A stretch of DNA of 64,000 nucleotides, from NCBI RefSeq assembly GCF_002775205.1, contig NC_036461.1:6919015-6983014 (forward strand), in the 5' to 3' direction. Origin of the DNA: Xiphophorus maculatus. Its lineage: Eukaryota > Chordata > Actinopteri > Cyprinodontiformes > Poeciliidae. The notes beneath the pieces are model-generated. The model was given only the letters and a program-made list of their open reading frames with translations. It was not told the DNA's origin and ran no database searches. Below are positions 30,944 to 40,474 of this stretch, in pieces. Position numbers and translations under genes: made by a program. Every line of letters begins with the position of its first letter. Position 1 is the stretch's first letter.

Positions 30944-33900
30944 ATGGATCAGCGGGTGTTCTGGGTGTTTGCCTCCGCAGTGTGCCTCCTCTCCCTCACC
31001 CTGCACTCTTCGTCCGGGCAGACCTACCCGCTGACTGATGATGGGGGTCTGGGCAGAGTGTTTGACGGGATCGGAGGGTTGAGCGGTGGAGGGGTGAGTC
31101 CAGTCTTTATCTGCAGCTTCCTGATTCGTTTTATTCTCGACCAGTTCTCCTGTTTGAGGTTCTTAATTTAATTCATTATGTTTTTTAGGCCACATCCCGG
31201 TTACTTGTGAACTATGCTGAGCCGTACCGGAGCCAGATCCTGGACTACCTGTTTAAGGTGAGATTCAGAGGCCGAGCTGCAGGAATGATCAGCTGATTGG
31301 TCTACATAAACAAAGGGAAACAAAGTAGCAGAGTAACTTCTGCTACAAAAGGCTCAACACTGTTGGTCTTTTTGCTTTCAGTCAGGGTTTAGTTTTTAAA
31401 ACAAAGTTCTGTCTGGCGAAATGTAGTTAAACAAACCTCGGAGTTTTTAAGGGAAATGTAGACCTTGTACAATTATGGCGGGTATGAATGTTAAAAATAA
31501 AGCTTAATCAAATCTTCAGGAAGATTTTGTTTACTGTAATCAGGTGACCATTTCCTGCTTCAAGTCCAGGTCGTTTATCTTAGGCTTTACTGTAATAAAT
31601 GGTGTGTTTGGAAACGTGTGACTGGAATACGATCCCATTTCCAATAAATCCTTTTTCAGAAGTAGTTTATGTTTTTGCAACAACCAGCCTATAATATATG
31701 CATGGCACCTGGCACCTTCCACACTGGTTGACCCTGGTGGTAGAGATGAGCACAAAGCCTTAAAATTATATATATATTTTTTTTTTTTACAGTAGGATAA
31801 TTTTTCATTAAAAATAAGAATCCAACTTTGAATTTAAGAACATTAATTCAATGGAGAAAAAAGAGTTTTCTAATTGTGAGATTATGCTACTGTAATAAAA
31901 TGAAGTTTTATGTACAGCCTTTTGACATCGCTTTACTAAGTTTAGTCAATAATTGAGTTCTGCATTTTATGACTGACATGTGGGTCTGCAGCGGCGTCGA
32001 TTCACAACAAATGTTGTCTTCAGGCACTAAACCAAAAAAGAAAAAAATACACACATATATATGCGAGTATATATATATATTTTTTATTTCAATTCAGTCA
32101 TGTATACATTCCAGTTCATCATTGTTATCAAACAGTGCAATATGCTCAGATAGTTATTAATAAAAGCTGAAAACGTGTCTGTCAAAGGAAGCCCAGTAGA
32201 TTGCATCAAGTCACCGATTTGCAACATTCTAGGCAGATTTGTTATTAAGTGTTGAAAGAAAATTTAGCTTTCATGGCATTTTACAAACAAAATGGCATGC
32301 ATGAACTGTTCCTGTTAAACCACTCTGGACAAAGTAAACAGTGTTTAGGCTGATAAGACATCTTTAGTTCTCCACTTGTTTAGTTTCCTCATTGATGAGA
32401 GGTTTTCACCTGAAAGTTCTTTGACAGTCAGCTCTTTGGAGGTAAAAACTCAAATTGTCTCCCTAATGAACTTCTTTTGAGTAAAATAGTCACTTTTCCA
32501 TGTCATTATACTGTCTGTTTTGTTCCTGCAGCCAAACTTTGGAGCCTCTTTGCACATTCTGAAGGTGGAGATCGGAGGAGATGCTCAGACTACAGGTACC
32601 TTGTATAACATTCACACATGTGTCACACAGTGCTTAATTTTTGCAGTTGGAGTGAAAGCATGCGATTTACGTTTTGTTTTTTCAATGGTGGCTTCATCAG
32701 ATGGAACGGAGGCTTCACACATGCACTACGAGAACGACGAGAACTACTTCAGAGGCTACGAGTGGTGGCTGATGAAGGAGGCCAAGAAGAGGAACCCGAA
32801 CATAACGCTAATAGGTGGGGAAGGGTTTCAGATGTACCAACCTGGGAGCTGAAATAGACAAATTTATGACCCAAAAGTGACTTCATGAAGTGTAAAATGG
32901 TGTGTTACACATGGATAAACTCTGTGTTGGTGCAGCGTTACCCTGGGCGTTCCCCGGCTGGGTCGGCCGTGGGAAGAACTGGCCTTATGACTTCCCAGAT
33001 GTTACTGCAGCGTACGTGGTGAACTGGGTCATAGGAGCCAAGAAATACCACGACTTGGACATTCAGTATATTGGGGTGAGTATTACTTATTAGTACAGCA
33101 CTGGTAGATATCCAATCATGGCTGAACATTTTCTGACTCAGGTTTAATCTGTTTCTGTGTTGGACTGACAAGCTTCTGAAAATGTTTGTATGAGCAAATC
33201 AATGAAGTTTCAACCAATTCTCACAGAATTGGGTTTTTGAAAGATCGGTGTTTGTTGGGAGATTATCAAGATTTAGGTCTTAATTCTCAAGATAATACTG
33301 ATCTATCAAGATAAAACTGATATTGATGTTGGAGTGTTATTTGCTACACCTTTCTGCAAAGTGAAAATGACTATTGCTGAGATGGAGAAACAATACCTTT
33401 AATTAAAACTGGCCCAAACCCTACTTTTTTTATCTGTCCAAATGCCAATTAGGATTTCAGATGGATTTACACATAATGAAACAATGATTATTTCTTTTTG
33501 TCATGAATTAAATTTTGAAACTAATAAAACTATTTCCATTGAATTAATCTGCATCTGAACAAAAATCTGAAAGCAATATGAACTGACAGCACAAAAACTA
33601 TAGTTACACAGTACAGGATTCTGTCCAGACATTCACACATTCTTAAATCAAACTCAGTCATTCTTACTATATTTTGCTTATAAATCTTTTGATGGTTAAA
33701 ATGATCCAGTTGGATTATTATGTGAAATATATTTAATTTAAAAACATATTCTTAGGATCTCAGGTGAAACTAGGTTTATTTGAAGGGAAAAAGGGAGGAA
33801 ATTGACAGAAACTGAAACGTTTTGTTGAATTTTTGTTTAGAAAAGGGTCGTCTTGCCGTAAAATGTTTTCTTTTTTCCCACTTAGATTTGGAACGAGCGG

Positions 33901-36900
33901 ACGTTCGACTCAAAGTACATCAAGGTGAGCAGTACTCCATGCATGTGATAAATGTGCATGAGCTCAGTCCACAGTCACCCATTTGGGAAGAACAGCCACT
34001 CACAATGAGCTGAGATCTTGGTGAAGTTCCTCTGAGAAAGTTTTCTTCTCACCAAGGTTCTGCGGAACATGCTGGACAGAGTCGGTCTGACCGACGTCGG
34101 CATCATCGCGGCAGATGGAGACTGGAGCATCGCTAAATCTCTGATCGCTGACCCACACCTTAATGACTCAGTTCAGGTGATTGGGTAAGTAGCGCAGAAC
34201 TCCTCCTGTAAACTCAACCGTTCGGAGTTCGTTCAGACTGATTGGCTAAATTATGACATTTGGAGGGGAAAGCTCAATTTCGTTTGGGAGGTTTATCTCT
34301 GAGATTCCACTTGCTCAGCTGACTGTCAGTGGCTGGTTTTCCGCTCGACTGTGTGAAACTAACAGACTGAACATCGTAACCCCTACAATCATATGAGCAT
34401 ATTTCTGCTCTTAAACTCCATTCTTTCTTTGCTGCCATCATGGAAAACTTTCAACACATACACCTACTGTATCTTCTGCTGTCACGTTTTGATAATAATC
34501 AGTAGTTCGCCTGGCTTTTCAACAAACAGACTGAAAAATACCAAATTAAAATGGAACTCAAATTGGCAGCAGGAGTTTTACAGAATGATGATTTCAGCTT
34601 TGATAATAATTTGTACAAAGAAGTTCGAGATAATTGGTTTGAATCTGTAACATAAGAACTAAAAGCATGATAAACCAAAAGAATTGGGTCATTTCAGAGT
34701 TTGGAAAGCCTCACCTAATGACTCTGCATACTCAGAGAGGAGTGTATAGCTCTATTAGTAAAACAGAAGTGTTACTTGTGTTACTAGAGTTACTGAATAG
34801 CTTCACCTTCATCTGATAAAGGCATGGCTTTCCAGTAAAAGTCTCTGTAGAGTTGATGAAACTCCATGCCTTTTGGTGGCATGTTGGTGACACCATGACA
34901 CCATTATTATTTGCTCTTTGTGAGGCCTGGTTTTATTCAGCTCCTCGTCCAGCTTTGTTTGTCACAGATTCAGTTATTTTAGGAATTTAGTCATTGCTTT
35001 GACTGTAGATGATGGCAAGTTTAGGTCAGCAGCTGTTTTCTTGCTGCCATTTCCAGATTTGTCACTCAAGACAAATCTGAATTACTTCTACGTTGATGGA
35101 GGAAAGGAAATCATTGCTTACAGATAAAGTTCAGAGATGCTATGATCAACTCAGAAAGCCAACGTATATTTATTTTGTTGTGGTTGTAGGGGATTCATTA
35201 GATGTGGTGATGGTCATTTTTGTTAAAGCAAGTAATTCTTATCATGGTCTTTTTTCTCACAATAGATACATTTATTTTAGGGTTTTTAGCTTCAACTTTG
35301 TGTTTTTCCCATAAAGTAAGATGAGTTTTCCATGACGGCAGCAAATCTTTAAAACTGAGCGAGGTGTGAATGTCTTTCTGCTCTCCACCCTGTAACTCCA
35401 CCAGCTGCTGCGGTACACTCTGGACAAGACTGGTTTGGAGTCGGTTCGGATCGTAGCCAGCGATAACCTGTGGGAGCCCATTACCGTGTCGCTGATGCTC
35501 GACCCAGAGCTCAGCAGCGCCGTAGACGTGATAGGGTAGGCCGTAGTCCGATTTGTTCCTGCTTTTCCGCTCCAGGGACTGCGCTAACAATAACCCCACT
35601 TCTGCGTGCCAACATGCATGACATCTCTGTGGAATGTCTCAAGGAAATTCTCATCATATTTCTTTAGTTTACTCGGCATGTTTAAGTTGGAAATCATCTT
35701 GACCTTTTTTTATTTACTTCATTCAATATTACTGTTAATAATCTTGTTTGTTCTGAATCAGGGCTCACTACCCAGGAACTACCACAGTGCCGCAGGCCTT
35801 GACCACAAAGAAAAAGCTGTGGTCATCGGAGGACTACAGCACCTTCAACAATGAGGTGGGAGGAGGCTGCTGGGCGCGGATCCTCAACCAGAACTACGTC
35901 AATGGACAAATGACTGCGTAAGGCACACGGAAAACCCCAGCAATGTTCCAGAGAAGTGAGAATTCATGTGACAAATGCCATCAAGTGACTCTATTGGCAG
36001 CTCCTGAGACATTGTAACACCTGCTGGTTGGTAGAAGTCGGCAGCGGTCTCAATCACACAGTTCAATCTAAAGTTTGTATTAAATGAAAATGTGCCTCAG
36101 TTTATCCAGTAAAACCAGTCCCATTTCATGGTTTCAGTCAAAGGGGATGAAGTCAGGTTTCTATTGCAGCAACTCTGAACCTTGTCATTACTTTACCCTC
36201 CTACTGCTGTCAGGCACATTCTAATTGACTGTTCTCCAATTTTCACTTTATATTTTGCTGCTTGGAGCAAGCATAACACCTGTCATACTTCCGACGAAGT
36301 ATGACACCTGTCATACTTAAAACACCTGTACAGGTGTTTTACAAAGTACAGGTGTTTTAAAACACCTGTACAAAGTACAGGTATTGGAAGAACTTCGTAC
36401 AGATGATCTACTTGTATTTGAAGCCTGTTTGCAGTAATTTCCTCAATTCTCTACTGGATTGCATTACTGCTGCCAAGCAGTGCTTGGACCAGTATTGTTT
36501 GTTTTTTCCATCACAGAAGACTGAATGCATTTTACTTAATGGCAACTTTGATGCAGATGTCATCGCTTTGACTTTTAACTTAAAGAACAGCGTTAGGAAA
36601 TTTGCACTTAAAAATTGACCCAGTCAATCCTAAATGTTCACACCTGTCTTCTGGAGCTCTGGCATCTCGTCCACAAAGCCTAAGATGAATTATGCCCCTA
36701 GCAAATTCAGGTTTCTAGTCATATCTTAATGTTACCAACATATGTCTTCCTGCTGGGATATTAATGTTTGGAATGACTTAACCAGAGTCCAGACAAAGAT
36801 CGGGGTGATGGCCAGGAAGGCTTTCAACCGCAAAGACTTGGAGCTAGTCACCAGAGATAAAGTGCAAAAATAAAATGGAAATAAAAAGTATTTTTCTAAA

Positions 36901-39900
36901 TATATTTCCCTTTTACATTGTTTTACTTTTTGTGAAACATCAATCTCTTTTCATTTTAGGAACTAACGTCTTGGTAGAATGATTGGAAATAATTTAACAT
37001 CCAAGTTTTCCAGGAGGCAAACTGTATCAGATATTGTATAACTGTATCAGATTTTGTATAACTGTCAGATATTGTATAACTGTATCAGATATTATATAAC
37101 TGTATCAGATACAGGCAAACTGTACAATAAATACTTGATTTATTGTACAGCTCTAGCAGTAAGTTAAATGAAATAATGAGCACTTTTAAAATAGTTAATG
37201 TTTGAAAATGCTCAAACTGAACTGCTGCCCTTTTTTTGAAGGAGTTTTTCTCTCCTTGTCACCTTGATGGTATTTTGAATGTGGTGCGTTGTGTCTGCTC
37301 ATGTTATCTGTTCAGGGATTGATTGCACTGACTCAGAGTTTTGCATCAGAATAGTTTGAGGTTCTAGCTGTGCCGCTCCTCCCTTCCTGCTTGCAGTCTG
37401 AACAACTGAAAGGGTTTAACAGATGAGAATAAAAGTATACTCTGTGTCCTGCAGAACCATCTCCTGGAACCTGGTGGCCAGTTATTACGAGGAGCTGCCG
37501 TTCGGCAGAGACGGGCTGATGACAGCTCAGGAACCTTGGAGTGGAAACTACGTGGTGGAGTCTCCAATCTGGATCACAGGTGTGTCACTATTGGATTAGT
37601 ATCCTCCTCATATGAGTCTAGTGACCCATATGAGGAGTTTGGGTTTTTTCACTCCTAAAAGACGAGCTCCCTAACCTTCAATTTTCTGAATTATTTCCAA
37701 TGTATTCCCACTAATCTCAGCCCTGTTCTCATGGAAATGTTCTTGACCTTGCTATAAAATCCATCCAACTTTCTTAGCATCTGGACCTAAAGGAGCTTGC
37801 ATGTTTTGTAAAATCATATCTTATTCTTCCTTCAGTTTCTGTCCTAAAGTTCTCAGATCTGGCCTAGTACTGAATCTAACATTATCCTGCGGTTCGATTG
37901 CTTTTTCCTAACTTCCAGCATTTGTTTCCTGAAGATGTTCAGTTTTATGTGTTCCAGCATTTGCAATGAGATTCCAGATATCATTCCAACTTTTCAGTGT
38001 CGGTTCCTTACAGCCCACAGCACACAGTTCACTCAGCCTGGATGGACATACCTGCAGACTGTTGGACACTTTGCTCAGGGAGGAAGTTATGTGGCCCTGA
38101 CAGACGGGTATGGAAACCTGACTGTTGTCATAGAAACCATGGTGAGTTAGTTCTTGGCCTTTACAGTGATCAGCACCTACACAATGAACGTGTAATCTTC
38201 TGGATGAAAAGTAAAGTCAGATAAAATGAATCGTGTTTTTCTTCCTCAGACTCATGATCACTCCATCTGCATCAGACCTCCTCTCCCTCCCTTCAATGTC
38301 ACGTCCCAGAATGCAACATTTCAGCTGAAAGGGTCCTTTGTAAGTCCTAATGAGCTCCTTCTATGTCTGATGAAACTCACTGAGAGATGCTGGTGCCTTT
38401 ACTCTCTGCTGCCTTTCTTTCTCCAAGGCCTCCATCAAAGAGCTGCAGGTGTGGAGGTCGCACTTTGACTTCAAGGCGAAGAAGCACTCGCTGTTCGAGA
38501 AGCTGCCTCCTGTGAAGGTTAACAAACACAAGCTTTTAATGCTGTGAAGAAATAGATGTTGGGGCCAGTCTGTATCCTGAAATGTTTCTGCCCCCTGCAG
38601 CTTGTAGATGGATCATTTACTCTGAATCTGGCTGAAGATGAAGTTTATACTCTGACCACCATCCGGACTGGACAGAAAGGGAGCTTCCCTGAGCCGCCAC
38701 CTTCAGCCCGCTTCCCTAAAGCCTACAAGGACAACTTTGATATTCGTAAGTTCAGAATCACTCGTAAACAAAGTTAGTTATTCTTTCCCCAGATATTAGA
38801 GTTACATGTCAGAATTTAGTAAGTTGAAATAGAAGCAAGAGAATACATATATATTATATTGCTAAACCATATTTATATATATATTTTTTTTATTTACTCC
38901 TCTTTAATGTTTTACATGTTTGTCCTATTCAGTTAATTTTTGCATTTTTATTTTTATCCATGGAACTGCAACTGAACAATTAGATTTTTTTTTTAATAAA
39001 TTTTTGTTTCATACAAAGAAAGCTGTATGTTTCTTTGTTTTTTGGGGGTGTTATTAAATCGCTTACATTGTTTTTTTTTTAGTTTAGCCAAGTTATTGAA
39101 ATGTATCCTTCAAAAACTTGCACAGTTTTTGAATTATTAGTTATTTCCTTGTTTTTACTAAGGAAAGAGTATTTTTAAAATGGTTTATGTCTTCAATATT
39201 TTTAGAAGGTTTATAAGTATTTCAAATAGAAGTAGCTTTTTAATTAAAAATGAACGATTTCCACTCTTTTCCAACTTTTTTAAAAATAAAATTTTATTTA
39301 CATTGTTCCAATTCACAACAAATGTACTTTGCATTGAAATGTTTTTTTTGTAATGATAAATGCATTCCAATTGGTACTAGTTACCAAATAGTACAGTAAG
39401 CTCAGTTTTCAAAGTAAAAAAAAAATATTTTAGACATGCAAAAATCAGAAAAAAGTATTACTTGAAGTGTAAGTTTAAAAGCTTGCACTGAGATGAAAGA
39501 AGTAAGCTGAAAGTACAGTATATTATCATTATACTTTAAAATGAATTTTTTACTATTCCTATTTAAGAGATTTAAAGATAATTTCTACTGTATAGTTGTT
39601 ACTTTGCGTCCATGCAGGAAACCCTCCGTTTTCTGAGGCCCCTAACTTCGCCGACCAAACCGGTGTGTTTGAGTACTACATTAACCTGACTGACCCCGGA
39701 CCACATGCCTTCACACTACGGCAGGTGGTGATGGAAAGACCGATCACCTGGGCAACGGACGCCGATCAAACCATCTCTGTCGTCGGAGACTACCAGTGGT
39801 AAGACAGCGCTGTGATAGCCACTGCTCTTCTCAGAGACCTGCATCTGGAAATTGAATCCACTAATGTTTGTGTGACAGGCAGGACATGGTGGTTACCTGC

Positions 39901-40474
39901 GATGTATTTATGGAGAACGTAAAAAGCGGCGGTGTGTTCGTGGCAGCCCGGGTGGATAAAGGAGGCCAGTCAGTACGCAGCGCTATGGGAGTCTTCTTCT
40001 GGGTGTTTGCCGATGGATCGTACAAGGTTACCAATGATCTGGGTCAGTTTTCTCCTTCTTCAGTGCAGAACAGAGTCCAAAACACAGGCTGTGATTTTAA
40101 TATTCTTTTTTTTATTCTATCTTTGATTAACAGCTGGACAGTCGGTGCTGGCAGAGGGACTGTCAGGAACCAGACCTTTTGATTGGCACAACTTGTCCCT
40201 TTCTGTAAAGGTGAGAAAATAATTTAACTTCTGATGAGATCTTTATGTAACAGCTTTTTTTTTAGGAGGGAAAGATATGCCAGATGGTTGAATGTCTGTC
40301 TTATTTTATTTTACTTTTTCCATGCTGCAGGGTCAGAGCGCCTCCGGAATGGTGGACGGACGGCAGCTGTGGAAAGTCACTGGAGTTTCTTCACCGAAGA
40401 ACGGCTGGGCAGCAATCGGAACGCACTCGTTTGAACTGGCTCAGTTTGATAACTTTAATGTGTTGGCAGAATAA
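30944..40474 (+). CDS. galc: Galactosylceramidase (galactocerebrosidase), GH59
   Basis: Exons: 30944-31093, 31189-31257, 32532-32595, 32701-32814, 32936-33075, 33886-33924, 7a 34057-34184 or 7b 35405-35535, 35762-35917, 37455-37579, 38014-38141, 38250-38339, 38428-38517, 38601-38745, 39618-39798, 39879-40042, 40134-40210, 40331-40474. All phases fit, giving 667 (7a) or 668 (7b) residues. The lysosomal enzyme removes galactose from galactosylceramide and psychosine; human loss causes Krabbe disease. A signal peptide ([16 protein letters not shown]) precedes [10 protein letters not shown]. The acid/base Glu is in IWNER (E183), the nucleophile in LWSSEDYS (E258 with 7a). The beta-sandwich and lectin-like domains follow ([53 protein letters not shown]). 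The human gene also has 17 exons. An AATAAA lies at 41094-41099. Fish can carry two GALC paralogues, so the a/b suffix is left open. Confidence 0.95.
34057..34184 (+). other. galc: GALC exon 7a, alternative version
   Basis: 128 bases, entering in phase 0 after an AG (ccaag) and leaving in phase 2 at gg|gtaagt. It codes [10 protein letters not shown], then [18 protein letters not shown], then VQVIG. About half of its residues match exon 7b by manual alignment, with a one-residue gap after the Asp-x-x-Trp region. The reading frame is intact and the substitutions are protein-like, so it does not look like a dead copy. It is the less human-like version. Confidence 0.85.
35405..35535 (+). other. 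galc: GALC exon 7b, vertebrate-type version
   Basis: 131 bases, entering in phase 0 after ccag and leaving in phase 2 at gg|gtaggc. It codes [10 protein letters not shown], then [19 protein letters not shown], then VDVIG. This agrees closely with human GALC (IIASDNLWESISASMLLD..VDVIG, recalled). It lies 1220 bases after exon 7a. Including both versions would shift the frame, as would skipping both. Confidence 0.88.
36319..36371. repeat. galc: Two adjoining perfect palindromes in GALC intron 8
   Basis: Positions 36319-36340 form a perfect 22-base palindrome built on aaaacacctgt, and 36346-36371 a perfect 26-base palindrome built on gtacaggtgtttt. They share the same core sequence, so the block is a chain of alternating inverted copies. 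A further imperfect arm pair (catactt..aagtatg) lies just upstream at about 36288-36307. Confidence 0.85.
36740..36890 (+). mobile_element. Tc1-like transposon 3'-part remnant
   Basis: The phrases gggtgatggccaggaaggct, 'ttcaaccgcaaagacttgga' and 'gtcaccagagataaagtgca' match a Tc1-type element end I recall from fish genomes. A more decayed copy of the same stretch lies at 63040-63145. No coding potential remains. Confidence 0.55.
37020..37112 (+). repeat. galc: 20-bp minisatellite in GALC intron
   Basis: About four and a half head-to-tail copies of aactgtatcagatattgtat, one shortened by three bases and others with single substitutions. The perfect hairpin at 37120-37150 follows directly. Confidence 0.85.
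37120..37150. repeat. Perfect short inverted repeat, 13-bp stem
   Basis: The arms ctgtacaataaat and atttattgtacag are exact reverse complements around a 5-base loop, in the GALC intron preceding the exon at 37455. Confidence 0.88.
37604..37637. repeat. Perfect short inverted repeat, 11-bp stem
   Basis: The arms ctcctcatatg and catatgaggag are separated by 12 bases, just downstream of the GALC exon ending at 37579. Confidence 0.85.

What the first reader, a model, noticed from the sequence alone, without database searches (positions are those of the whole stretch)
34057..35535. Two homologous, frame-exclusive versions of GALC exon 7
Exon 7a (34057-34184) and 7b (35405-35535) code homologous segments, 21 of about 43 aligned residues identical by hand. 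Both enter in phase 0 and leave in phase 2, with good splice sites. Using both, or neither, shifts the frame, so only one can be included per mRNA. This is the arrangement of mutually exclusive exons from tandem exon duplication. I know of no description of this for galactosylceramidase. The segment lies between the acid/base Glu (IWNER) and the nucleophile Glu (LWSSED), in the catalytic barrel, so the isoforms could differ in activity, stability or substrate.
Basis: partly seen in the sequence, partly recalled or inferred. Interest (0 to 1): 0.92.

Follow-up and report, generated by a model that had tools for sequence, protein, structure and literature searches.

The report
Alternative exon pair in Krabbe-disease enzyme gene
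The gene for galactosylceramidase, the enzyme missing in Krabbe disease, carries in this fish two rival versions of one exon in its catalytic core; the second version is found from sharks to birds but was not seen in any mammal, and the swap rebuilds a surface loop next to where the enzyme's helper protein docks.

Summary
Confirmed, and larger than reported. The window holds a 17-exon GALC gene (30944-40474); its 668-aa product equals a protein named Xiphophorus maculatus isoform X1. Exon 7b is canonical. Exon 7a is a diverged tandem copy (20 of 43 residues identical) with intact frame and splice sites. Three searches brought in 168 other proteins with 7a, from sharks, chimaera, lungfish, amphibians, squamates, birds and ray-finned fish; no mammal is named among the listed hits. 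7a forms one clade (100/100), so the duplication appears to predate living jawed vertebrates. Three 7a proteins of about 660 aa come from 2.2-2.7-kb contigs, best explained as spliced transcripts. In ostariophysan fish 7a and 7b sit in two different GALC genes. 7b has one extra residue, a proline after Glu215, the site of Krabbe mutation E215K beside the saposin A surface; bacterial relatives lack it, as 7a does. No description was found in the papers searched, though databases already list the isoforms. Exclusivity is not absolute: another donor inside 7a would join both exons in frame. How the isoforms differ in function is inferred, not shown.

The parts
30944..40474 (+). GALC (galactosylceramidase, GH59) gene, 17 coding positions, exon 7 in two versions
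   Evidence: all GT-AG model with open frame of 668 aa (a second exon 14 donor 3 nt upstream is also open); 100% identical over 668 aa to P0264, Xiphophorus maculatus isoform X1; P0264 against mouse GALC 3zr5 E=2.1e-299
33886..33924 (+). exon 6 (IWNER...YIK; carries the acid/base Glu)
33925..34056 (+). 132-nt intron before 7a; holds two TGCATG (RBFOX-type) hexamers at 33940 and 33955
   Evidence: motif name recalled, function untested
34057..34184 (+). exon 7a, alternative copy, [42 protein letters not shown](G)
34169..34184 (+). end of 7a with two possible donors: CAG|gtgatt after 34176 (would allow both exons in frame) and TGG|gtaagt after 34184 (the one that fits the conserved isoforms)
34185..35404 (+). 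1220-nt intron between 7a and 7b
35405..35535 (+). exon 7b, canonical copy (the type in mouse GALC), with the extra Pro after Trp-Glu
35762..35917 (+). exon 8, shared downstream partner (AHYPG...LWSSED, nucleophile Glu)

Best explanation
Exons 7a and 7b are an ancient tandem-duplicated, alternatively used exon pair of GALC. Shown: two intact homologous exons; either alone gives a full-length enzyme frame; both kinds of full-length product occur in other species, some on transcript-sized contigs; 7a is one clade with members in cartilaginous fish, lobe-finned and ray-finned lineages; in ostariophysan fish the two versions are found in two separate genes. Inferred: the duplication predates living jawed vertebrates; each mRNA normally takes one exon, because skipping both or joining both by the usual donors shifts the frame and should trigger NMD, with regulated splicing making the choice. 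Inferred: the swap leaves catalysis intact but rebuilds the loop after barrel strand 5 (7b ASDNLW-E215-P216-I; 7a AADGDW-S-I), which lies beside the reported saposin A docking surface, so the isoforms most likely differ in how, or on what lipid, the activator couples to the enzyme. 7a seems to have been lost on the line to mammals. The confidence given is for the exon pair itself; for the saposin step alone it is about 0.4.
For: Gene model and frames. Homology 20/43, E=8e-11. 7a-only query: 116 of 122 candidates at E<=0.01, all GALC-family, vertebrate wherever an organism is named; 72 of the 116 are named isoform X2 by my count. Second 7a query: 179 hits, 120 listed, adding sharks, chimaera, lungfish, caecilians, snakes. 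All 277 retrieved proteins carry a 7a (168) or 7b (119) segment, 10 of them both (gathered by 7a- and 7b-directed queries, so not frequencies). 7a one clade 100/100 with 37 chosen rows. In 21 species with both exons, mean pairwise identity 69% for 7a, 78% for 7b. Transcript-sized contigs: P0007 (2740 bp), P0130 (2250), P0166 (2332) with 7a; P0188 (2566) with 7b. 7a and 7b models on contigs of the same length in Etheostoma, Neolamprologus, Polymixia, Oncorhynchus masou, Trematomus; on contigs of different length in Chanos, Leuciscus, Cyprinus. 8 ostariophysan 7a proteins form a clade 100/100 apart from 9 ostariophysan 7b proteins. Catalytic NE and SED invariant in 35 aligned 7a isoforms. E215K is secreted and reaches the lysosome (PMC4949656, passages), is said to keep activity and to lie beside the SapA site (PMC5764952, passages). 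Both zebrafish GALC co-orthologues are reported active and lysosomal (PMC10002607, passages).
Against: No RNA-seq junction counts, tissue data or dN/dS could be obtained, and no transcript from the window's own species. Most 7a proteins are annotation models; a few are labelled X1 rather than X2 (P0071, P0093, P0168). 7a is less conserved than 7b. An alternative donor permits both exons in frame, and 3 of 10 both-exon annotated proteins have that junction. No 7b of a cartilaginous fish was read, so the age rests on the rooted 44-column tree. In the tree without exon 7 the closest relatives of the ostariophysan 7a genes are eel-like and bony-tongue proteins with 7b, so the history of the two genes is not simple. 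PMC5764952 says E215 does not contact SapA directly, and PMC4949656 saw reduced lysosomal cleavage product for E215K; the saposin reading rests on proximity. Which zebrafish gene carries 7a was not read. Absence in mammals rests on listed hits: 59 of 179 were not listed.
Confidence: 0.88

Rival explanations
1. 7a is a decaying, unused exon copy that annotation pipelines pick up from coding potential alone.
For: Most 7a entries are predicted models; 7a is less conserved than 7b (69% against 78%).
Against: Frame and segment kept from sharks to teleosts; 7a-specific A210 and G212 each in 99% of 143 different segments; transcript-sized contigs with 7a alone; ostariophysan genes whose only retrieved version is 7a.
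Confidence: 0.05
2. The two exons are not exclusive in practice: a both-exon protein (708 aa) made through the alternative 7a donor is a real third product.
For: CAG|gtgatt after 34176 matches MAG|GTRAGT at 8 of 9 places by my count, and the 708-aa frame is open; 3 of 10 annotated both-exon proteins (P0003, P0006, P0119) have this junction.
Against: It would insert a second helix-strand-helix unit into a closed barrel; the other 7 both-exon proteins use five other junctions, as gene predictors would; none of the four transcript-sized contigs has both exons.
Confidence: 0.1
3. The switch changes activity, pH stability or headgroup specificity of the enzyme itself rather than saposin coupling.
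For: The segment holds barrel strand 5 and the loop after it (S210A, N212G, L213D, Pro216 missing), between the two catalytic motifs.
Against: PMC4949656 (passages) says E215, in this loop, does not lie near the active site; Asp211 and Trp214 are shared by all 7a and 7b segments.
Confidence: 0.35
4. Exon choice serves mainly to regulate expression: the out-of-frame products feed NMD and the two proteins are equivalent.
For: Both wrong combinations give early stops with the usual donors.
Against: Type-specific residues kept across jawed vertebrates and the two versions found in two retained genes in ostariophysans argue for distinct protein roles.
Confidence: 0.1

Closest known systems
Mutually exclusive exons from tandem exon duplication in vertebrates (SNAP25 exon 5, OGDH exons 4a/4b, U2AF1 exons; search listings and starts of abstracts only)
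   Same: Adjacent homologous exons of nearly equal length and equal phase; skipping or joining both breaks the frame; old and conserved
   Different: Here in a lysosomal hydrolase; no mammal seen with it, and two human surveys have no GALC in their main text (PMC5740500, PMC9741552; term searches); found in two separate genes in ostariophysan fish
Canonical GALC / GH59 (mouse 3zr5, 4ccc, 5nxb)
   Same: Protein outside exon 7, catalytic residues, domains PF17387/PF21708/PF02057, fold (7a model: best match 3zr5, E 2e-82, TM 0.78, rmsd 6.6)
   Different: 7a replaces residues 192-235 by a 43-residue version lacking Pro216 and with A210, G212, usually D213
Zebrafish galca/galcb (PMC10002607, PMC7218095, passages)
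   Same: Two co-orthologues reported active and lysosomal; related ostariophysans have a 7a gene and a 7b gene
   Different: The passages read do not mention the exon difference; the primary paper and the zebrafish sequences were not read
Human intron-6 cryptic exon c.621+758_791 (PMC12731088, section 19)
   Same: Lies between exons 6 and 7, as 7a does; its first codon is Val (from p.Ile208Valfs), as in 7a
   Different: 34 nt, frame-shifting, disease-causing when activated; homology to 7a untested
GALC exon-evolution survey of 110 orthologues incl. X. maculatus (PMC12008523, passages)
   Same: Same gene, overlapping species
   Different: Reports one exon duplication, in a fruit bat near the N-terminus; the words isoform and splic- do not occur in its main text

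Membership tests
Mutually exclusive exons from tandem duplication | Adjacent homologous exons | tested here: met
   20/43 identical, E=8e-11; 1220 nt apart
Mutually exclusive exons from tandem duplication | Same phases and compatible lengths, proper splice sites | tested here: met
   0/2 and 0/2; 128 and 131 nt; AG/GT
Mutually exclusive exons from tandem duplication | Both-in and both-out products non-productive | tested here: inconclusive
   Met with the usual donors (stops at codons 252 and 223); not met with the alternative 7a donor
Mutually exclusive exons from tandem duplication | Transcripts with each exon alone | tested here: met
   Transcript-sized contigs of other, unnamed species: P0007, P0130, P0166 (7a), P0188 (7b); none from the window's own species
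Mutually exclusive exons from tandem duplication | Rarity of both/neither junctions in RNA-seq, regulated choice | not testable with these tools
   No reads available
Mutually exclusive exons from tandem duplication | Both exons under constraint | tested here: met
   Protein level only: 69% and 78% mean identity over 210 pairs of 21 species; dN/dS not testable
GALC (GH59) | Catalytic acid/base and nucleophile Glu in the right motifs | tested here: met
   NE and SED invariant in the 7a alignment of 35; present in the window
GALC (GH59) | Fold and domains | tested here: met
   3zr5 TM 0.78, E 2e-82 for the 7a isoform P0008; Pfam PF17387, PF21708, PF02057 listed for P0264
GALC (GH59) | Galactosylceramidase activity of the 7a form | not tested
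   Indirect: both zebrafish genes reported active, exon type of each not read

The most novel reading that the evidence does not exclude
The exon switch is a saposin switch. 7b, with its added Glu215-Pro216, is the form tuned to saposin A and to galactolipid in membranes. 7a keeps the loop length seen in bacterial enzymes, which act without saposins (recalled), and works with another activator or without one. Mammals lost 7a, and the 34-nt cryptic exon in human GALC intron 6 that causes Krabbe disease when activated is its fossil. In ostariophysan fish the switch became two genes.
Probability: 0.25. Interest if true: 0.9.

Novelty: new member of a known kind. Interest (0 to 1): 0.74.

Why it matters
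GALC is the Krabbe disease gene, studied for decades as one protein. An alternative exon for its catalytic barrel, found in lineages from sharks to birds and apparently missing in mammals, means that many non-mammalian models may make two GALC enzymes, and that knockdowns or assays in them may mix the two. The swap falls on the loop hit by E215K, a Krabbe mutation thought to disturb saposin A coupling, so natural isoforms (and the separate 7a and 7b genes of ostariophysan fish) offer a ready-made test of how saposins select their hydrolase. A relic of 7a in human intron 6, if there, would explain a pathogenic pseudoexon.

Tried and rejected
Chance resemblance of intron sequence: rejected. Ab initio artefact: rejected as the main account, because of transcript-sized contigs and clade-wide constraint.

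7a as simply 'the ancestral exon': only partly kept. For: none of 40 bacterial segments has the Pro (one of the 40, L043, is not a clean alignment; 6 of 46 loci gave no usable segment), and 34 of 40 score higher with the 7a profile. Against: 6 of 40 score higher with 7b; bacterial residues at columns 1 and 35 are more 7b-like; the rooted tree puts the long stem on 7a (0.9 against 0.046). I therefore claim only that the extra Pro of 7b looks derived.

One 7b row (Etheostoma) falls beside the 7a clade in the 44-column tree (92/75); I take this as noise. RBFOX hexamers before 7a: two in 132 nt, in 16 of 5000 shuffles and in 271 of 63868 132-nt stretches of the window, but picked after looking and in one species, so only a lead. 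Structure models from 35-row alignments were middling (mean pLDDT 72.5 for 7a, 61.2 for 7b) and serve only for secondary structure. Failed first attempts: one search used wrong exon borders (mended), extracted only part of the bacterial segments (replaced), one search found no segments because of my pattern (replaced). The rest of the assembly could not be searched. No lamprey or invertebrate GALC was obtained. Rows dropped: one search used 231 of 277 proteins (length 620-760, one exon 7 only); one search used 43 chosen proteins and left out P0157, an ostariophysan 7a protein fused into a 1263-aa model; one search used a chosen 71 vertebrate and 16 bacterial rows.

Full report
WHAT IS THERE. 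The + strand carries a complete GALC gene. Requiring GT-AG introns and an open frame gave 17 coding exons from 30944 to 40474 and a 668-aa protein (a model one residue shorter, by another exon 14 donor, is also open). The 668-aa protein is identical over its whole length to P0264, named galactocerebrosidase isoform X1 of Xiphophorus maculatus, so the window is platyfish or a very near relative. Exon 7b (35405-35535) is the canonical exon: by itself it matches mouse GALC 4ccc/3zr5 at E=4.6e-10, whereas 7a finds no PDB chain at 1e-3. Exon 7a (34057-34184) is homologous to 7b (20 of 43 aligned columns, E=8e-11) and has proper borders; replacing 7b by 7a gives a 667-aa open frame. With both exons the frame stops at codon 252, with neither at codon 223, with 10 and 9 junctions downstream. 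tblastn of the GALC protein against the window shows no second copy of any other exon (four further matches have E 0.20 or more).

A CORRECTION. Exclusivity by frame is not airtight. Eight bases inside 7a, after 34176, stands CAG|gtgatt. Using it, 7a is 120 nt and joins 7b in frame to give 708 aa. Three of the ten annotated proteins that contain both exons (P0003, P0006, P0119) have this junction; the other seven use five other junctions. The 7a-only proteins keep the last codons of 7a (V-I-G or alike), which fits the downstream donor.

HOW OLD AND HOW WIDESPREAD. A search scored on 7a with three residues before it and five after gave 116 hits of 122 candidates at E<=0.01, all GALC-family and, wherever an organism is named, vertebrate; 72 of the 116 are named isoform X2 by my count. 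A second query with gecko, frog, sturgeon and bird 7a units gave 179 hits at E<=10, of which 120 were listed; it added sharks (Hemiscyllium, Chiloscyllium, Heptranchias), a ray (Narcine), Callorhinchus, Protopterus, caecilians, snakes and ostariophysan fish. A third query, aimed at 7b in a cyprinid-like context, gave 720 hits, 120 listed. All 277 proteins so collected carry a 7a segment (168) or a 7b segment (119), ten of them both; they were gathered by 7a- and 7b-directed queries and fitted without gaps to 43- or 44-residue segments, so these numbers are not frequencies. No mammal is named in the three listings. That is weak for mammals as such: 59 hits and 600 were not listed, and one search listed no mammal either although mouse has 7b. 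The full listing, which reaches birds, frogs and geckos but no mammal, is the best evidence for loss.

TWO CLADES. On 143 different 7a and 84 different 7b segments, seven columns besides the indel separate the versions almost completely (overlap under 5%): residues 192, 195, 200, 210 (A/S), 212 (G/N), 213 (mostly D/L) and 226 (mostly Y/E) (numbering from E182 of mouse GALC, alignment, E182 named in PMC12731088). 7b has one more residue, Pro216, in all 84. In a tree of the 44 columns with 16 bacterial rows, 7a is one clade at 100/100 (37 rows, cartilaginous fish to birds and teleosts); 33 of 34 7b rows, mouse included, fall together with weak support (83/68), and one falls beside the 7a clade. 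This puts the duplication before the split of cartilaginous and bony vertebrates, with the reserve that no 7b of a cartilaginous fish was read. Where both exons are known for one species (21 species, 210 pairs), mean identity is 69% for 7a and 78% for 7b (some rows come from both-exon models with clipped ends, which lowers both figures). dN/dS could not be computed for want of DNA from other species.

IS IT EXPRESSED. Four full-length proteins of 660-667 aa come from 'lgn' contigs of only 2.2-2.7 kb: P0007, P0130 and P0166 with 7a, P0188 with 7b (segments). The coding part of the gene spans 9.5 kb in the window, so these contigs are best explained as spliced RNA (intronless retrocopies are the less likely alternative). 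7a and 7b models of one species sit on contigs of identical length in Etheostoma spectabile, Neolamprologus, Polymixia, Oncorhynchus masou and Trematomus. No reads from the window's own species were available.

A NATURAL EXPERIMENT. In ostariophysan fish the two versions are in different genes. Chanos chanos has a 7a protein on a 53.9-Mb contig and a 7b protein on a 63.1-Mb contig; Leuciscus waleckii and Cyprinus carpio likewise have them on contigs of different length. In a tree built without exon 7, the eight ostariophysan 7a proteins included form a clade at 100/100, away from the nine ostariophysan 7b proteins included, which group with two herring relatives (91/83) and then with percomorphs, cod, smelt and salmonids (96/95) (the larger quick tree, agrees for 7 and 19 proteins). 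In one search a protein with the flanks of the 7a gene and a 7b segment should have been the top hit, and none was listed. Two teleost GALC genes that each kept one exon would give this. A complication: the nearest relatives of the 7a genes are bony-tongue and eel-like proteins with 7b, some named isoform X1, so those lineages may still have both. Reviews report that zebrafish has two GALC co-orthologues, both active and lysosomal, each contributing part of the activity (PMC10002607, passages; PMC7218095, passages; the primary paper was not read). If zebrafish follows its relatives, the 7a form is an active galactosylceramidase; the zebrafish sequences were not read here.

WHERE THE SWAP FALLS. 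In the AlphaFold model of a 7a isoform (P0008) the exon covers the latter part of helix 188-200, strand 207-212, helices 217-223 and 225-230 and the start of strand 233-237, with mean pLDDT of 75-92 per block of ten; the poorer 7b model has the same elements shifted by one residue after the loop. The 7a model's best PDB matches are mouse GALC, including the saposin A complex 5nxb. The two catalytic motifs lie outside the exon and are invariant in the 7a set. The clearest change is the loop after strand 5: 7b A-S-D-N-L-W-E215-P216-I, 7a A-A-D-G-D-W-S-I. Counting from E182, Glu215 is the Glu of LWEP. E215K is a Krabbe mutation that is secreted and reaches the lysosome, with reduced but detectable cleavage product, and lies on the surface; its authors suggest it may disturb partners such as saposin A (PMC4949656, passages). 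The GALC-SapA paper says it retains activity and lies adjacent to the SapA site without direct contact (PMC5764952, passages). Of 40 bacterial GH59 segments none has the Pro, and 34 of 40 score higher with the 7a profile than with the 7b profile. Against a simple 'ancestral 7a': columns 1 and 35 are more 7b-like in bacteria, and the 7a stem is long.

HOW IT MOST LIKELY WORKS. Shown: two intact, conserved exons, either of which completes the enzyme frame. Inferred: splicing factors choose one; the usual wrong combinations are removed by NMD. Inferred, with moderate support (about 0.4): the choice tunes the saposin-facing loop, hence activator dependence or lipid range, while catalysis is kept. 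Direct effects on activity or stability are a serious rival.

WHAT IS KNOWN. Searches for GALC together with mutually exclusive, alternative or duplicated exons found no description (one search listed 40 of 195 papers; the library lacks most subscription journals). Two large human surveys have no GALC in their main text (PMC5740500, PMC9741552; term searches; supplements not read). A study of GALC exon evolution, with platyfish among its 110 orthologues, uses neither 'isoform' nor 'splic-' and reports an exon duplication only in a fruit bat (PMC12008523, passages). The kind (tandem-duplicated alternative exons) is well known; this member seems undescribed. A human lead: a 34-nt cryptic exon in intron 6, present in two NCBI transcripts, beginning with a Val codon (from p.Ile208Valfs) and pathogenic when activated by c.621+772G>C (PMC12731088, section 19), stands where 7a would be; whether it descends from 7a was not testable here.

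Noticed in passing
33940-33960 (intron before 7a): Two TGCATG hexamers (RBFOX-type, name recalled) 15 nt apart just after the exon 6 donor; 16 of 5000 dinucleotide shuffles have two. Possible regulator sites for 7a.
   Followed up: partly
34162-34170 (7a codons N-D-S): A glycosylation sequon in the 7a version; N-x-S/T at this place in 47 of 143 different 7a segments, and no sequon in any of 84 different 7b segments.
   Followed up: partly
34176/34177 inside exon 7a: Alternative donor CAG|gtgatt that would join 7a and 7b in frame (708 aa).
   Followed up: yes
37020-37111 (intron 8): Short tandem array, 20-bp unit, 4.7 copies.
   Followed up: no
P0142 Microcaecilia and P0151 Geotrypetes, 7a segment: Two caecilian 7a exons read ASDN instead of AADG, the 7b-type tetrapeptide in a 7a frame, while Rhinatrema (P0143) keeps AADG: convergence or short gene conversion between the exons.
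   Followed up: no
[quoted passage not shown]
   Followed up: partly
L001-L046: GALC-like genes in bacteria whose record titles name Bacteroidia, Verrucomicrobia, Acidobacteria, Planctomycetia, Ktedonobacteria, Streptomyces and others, most with a longer loop between strand 5 and the Trp than in vertebrates.
   Followed up: no
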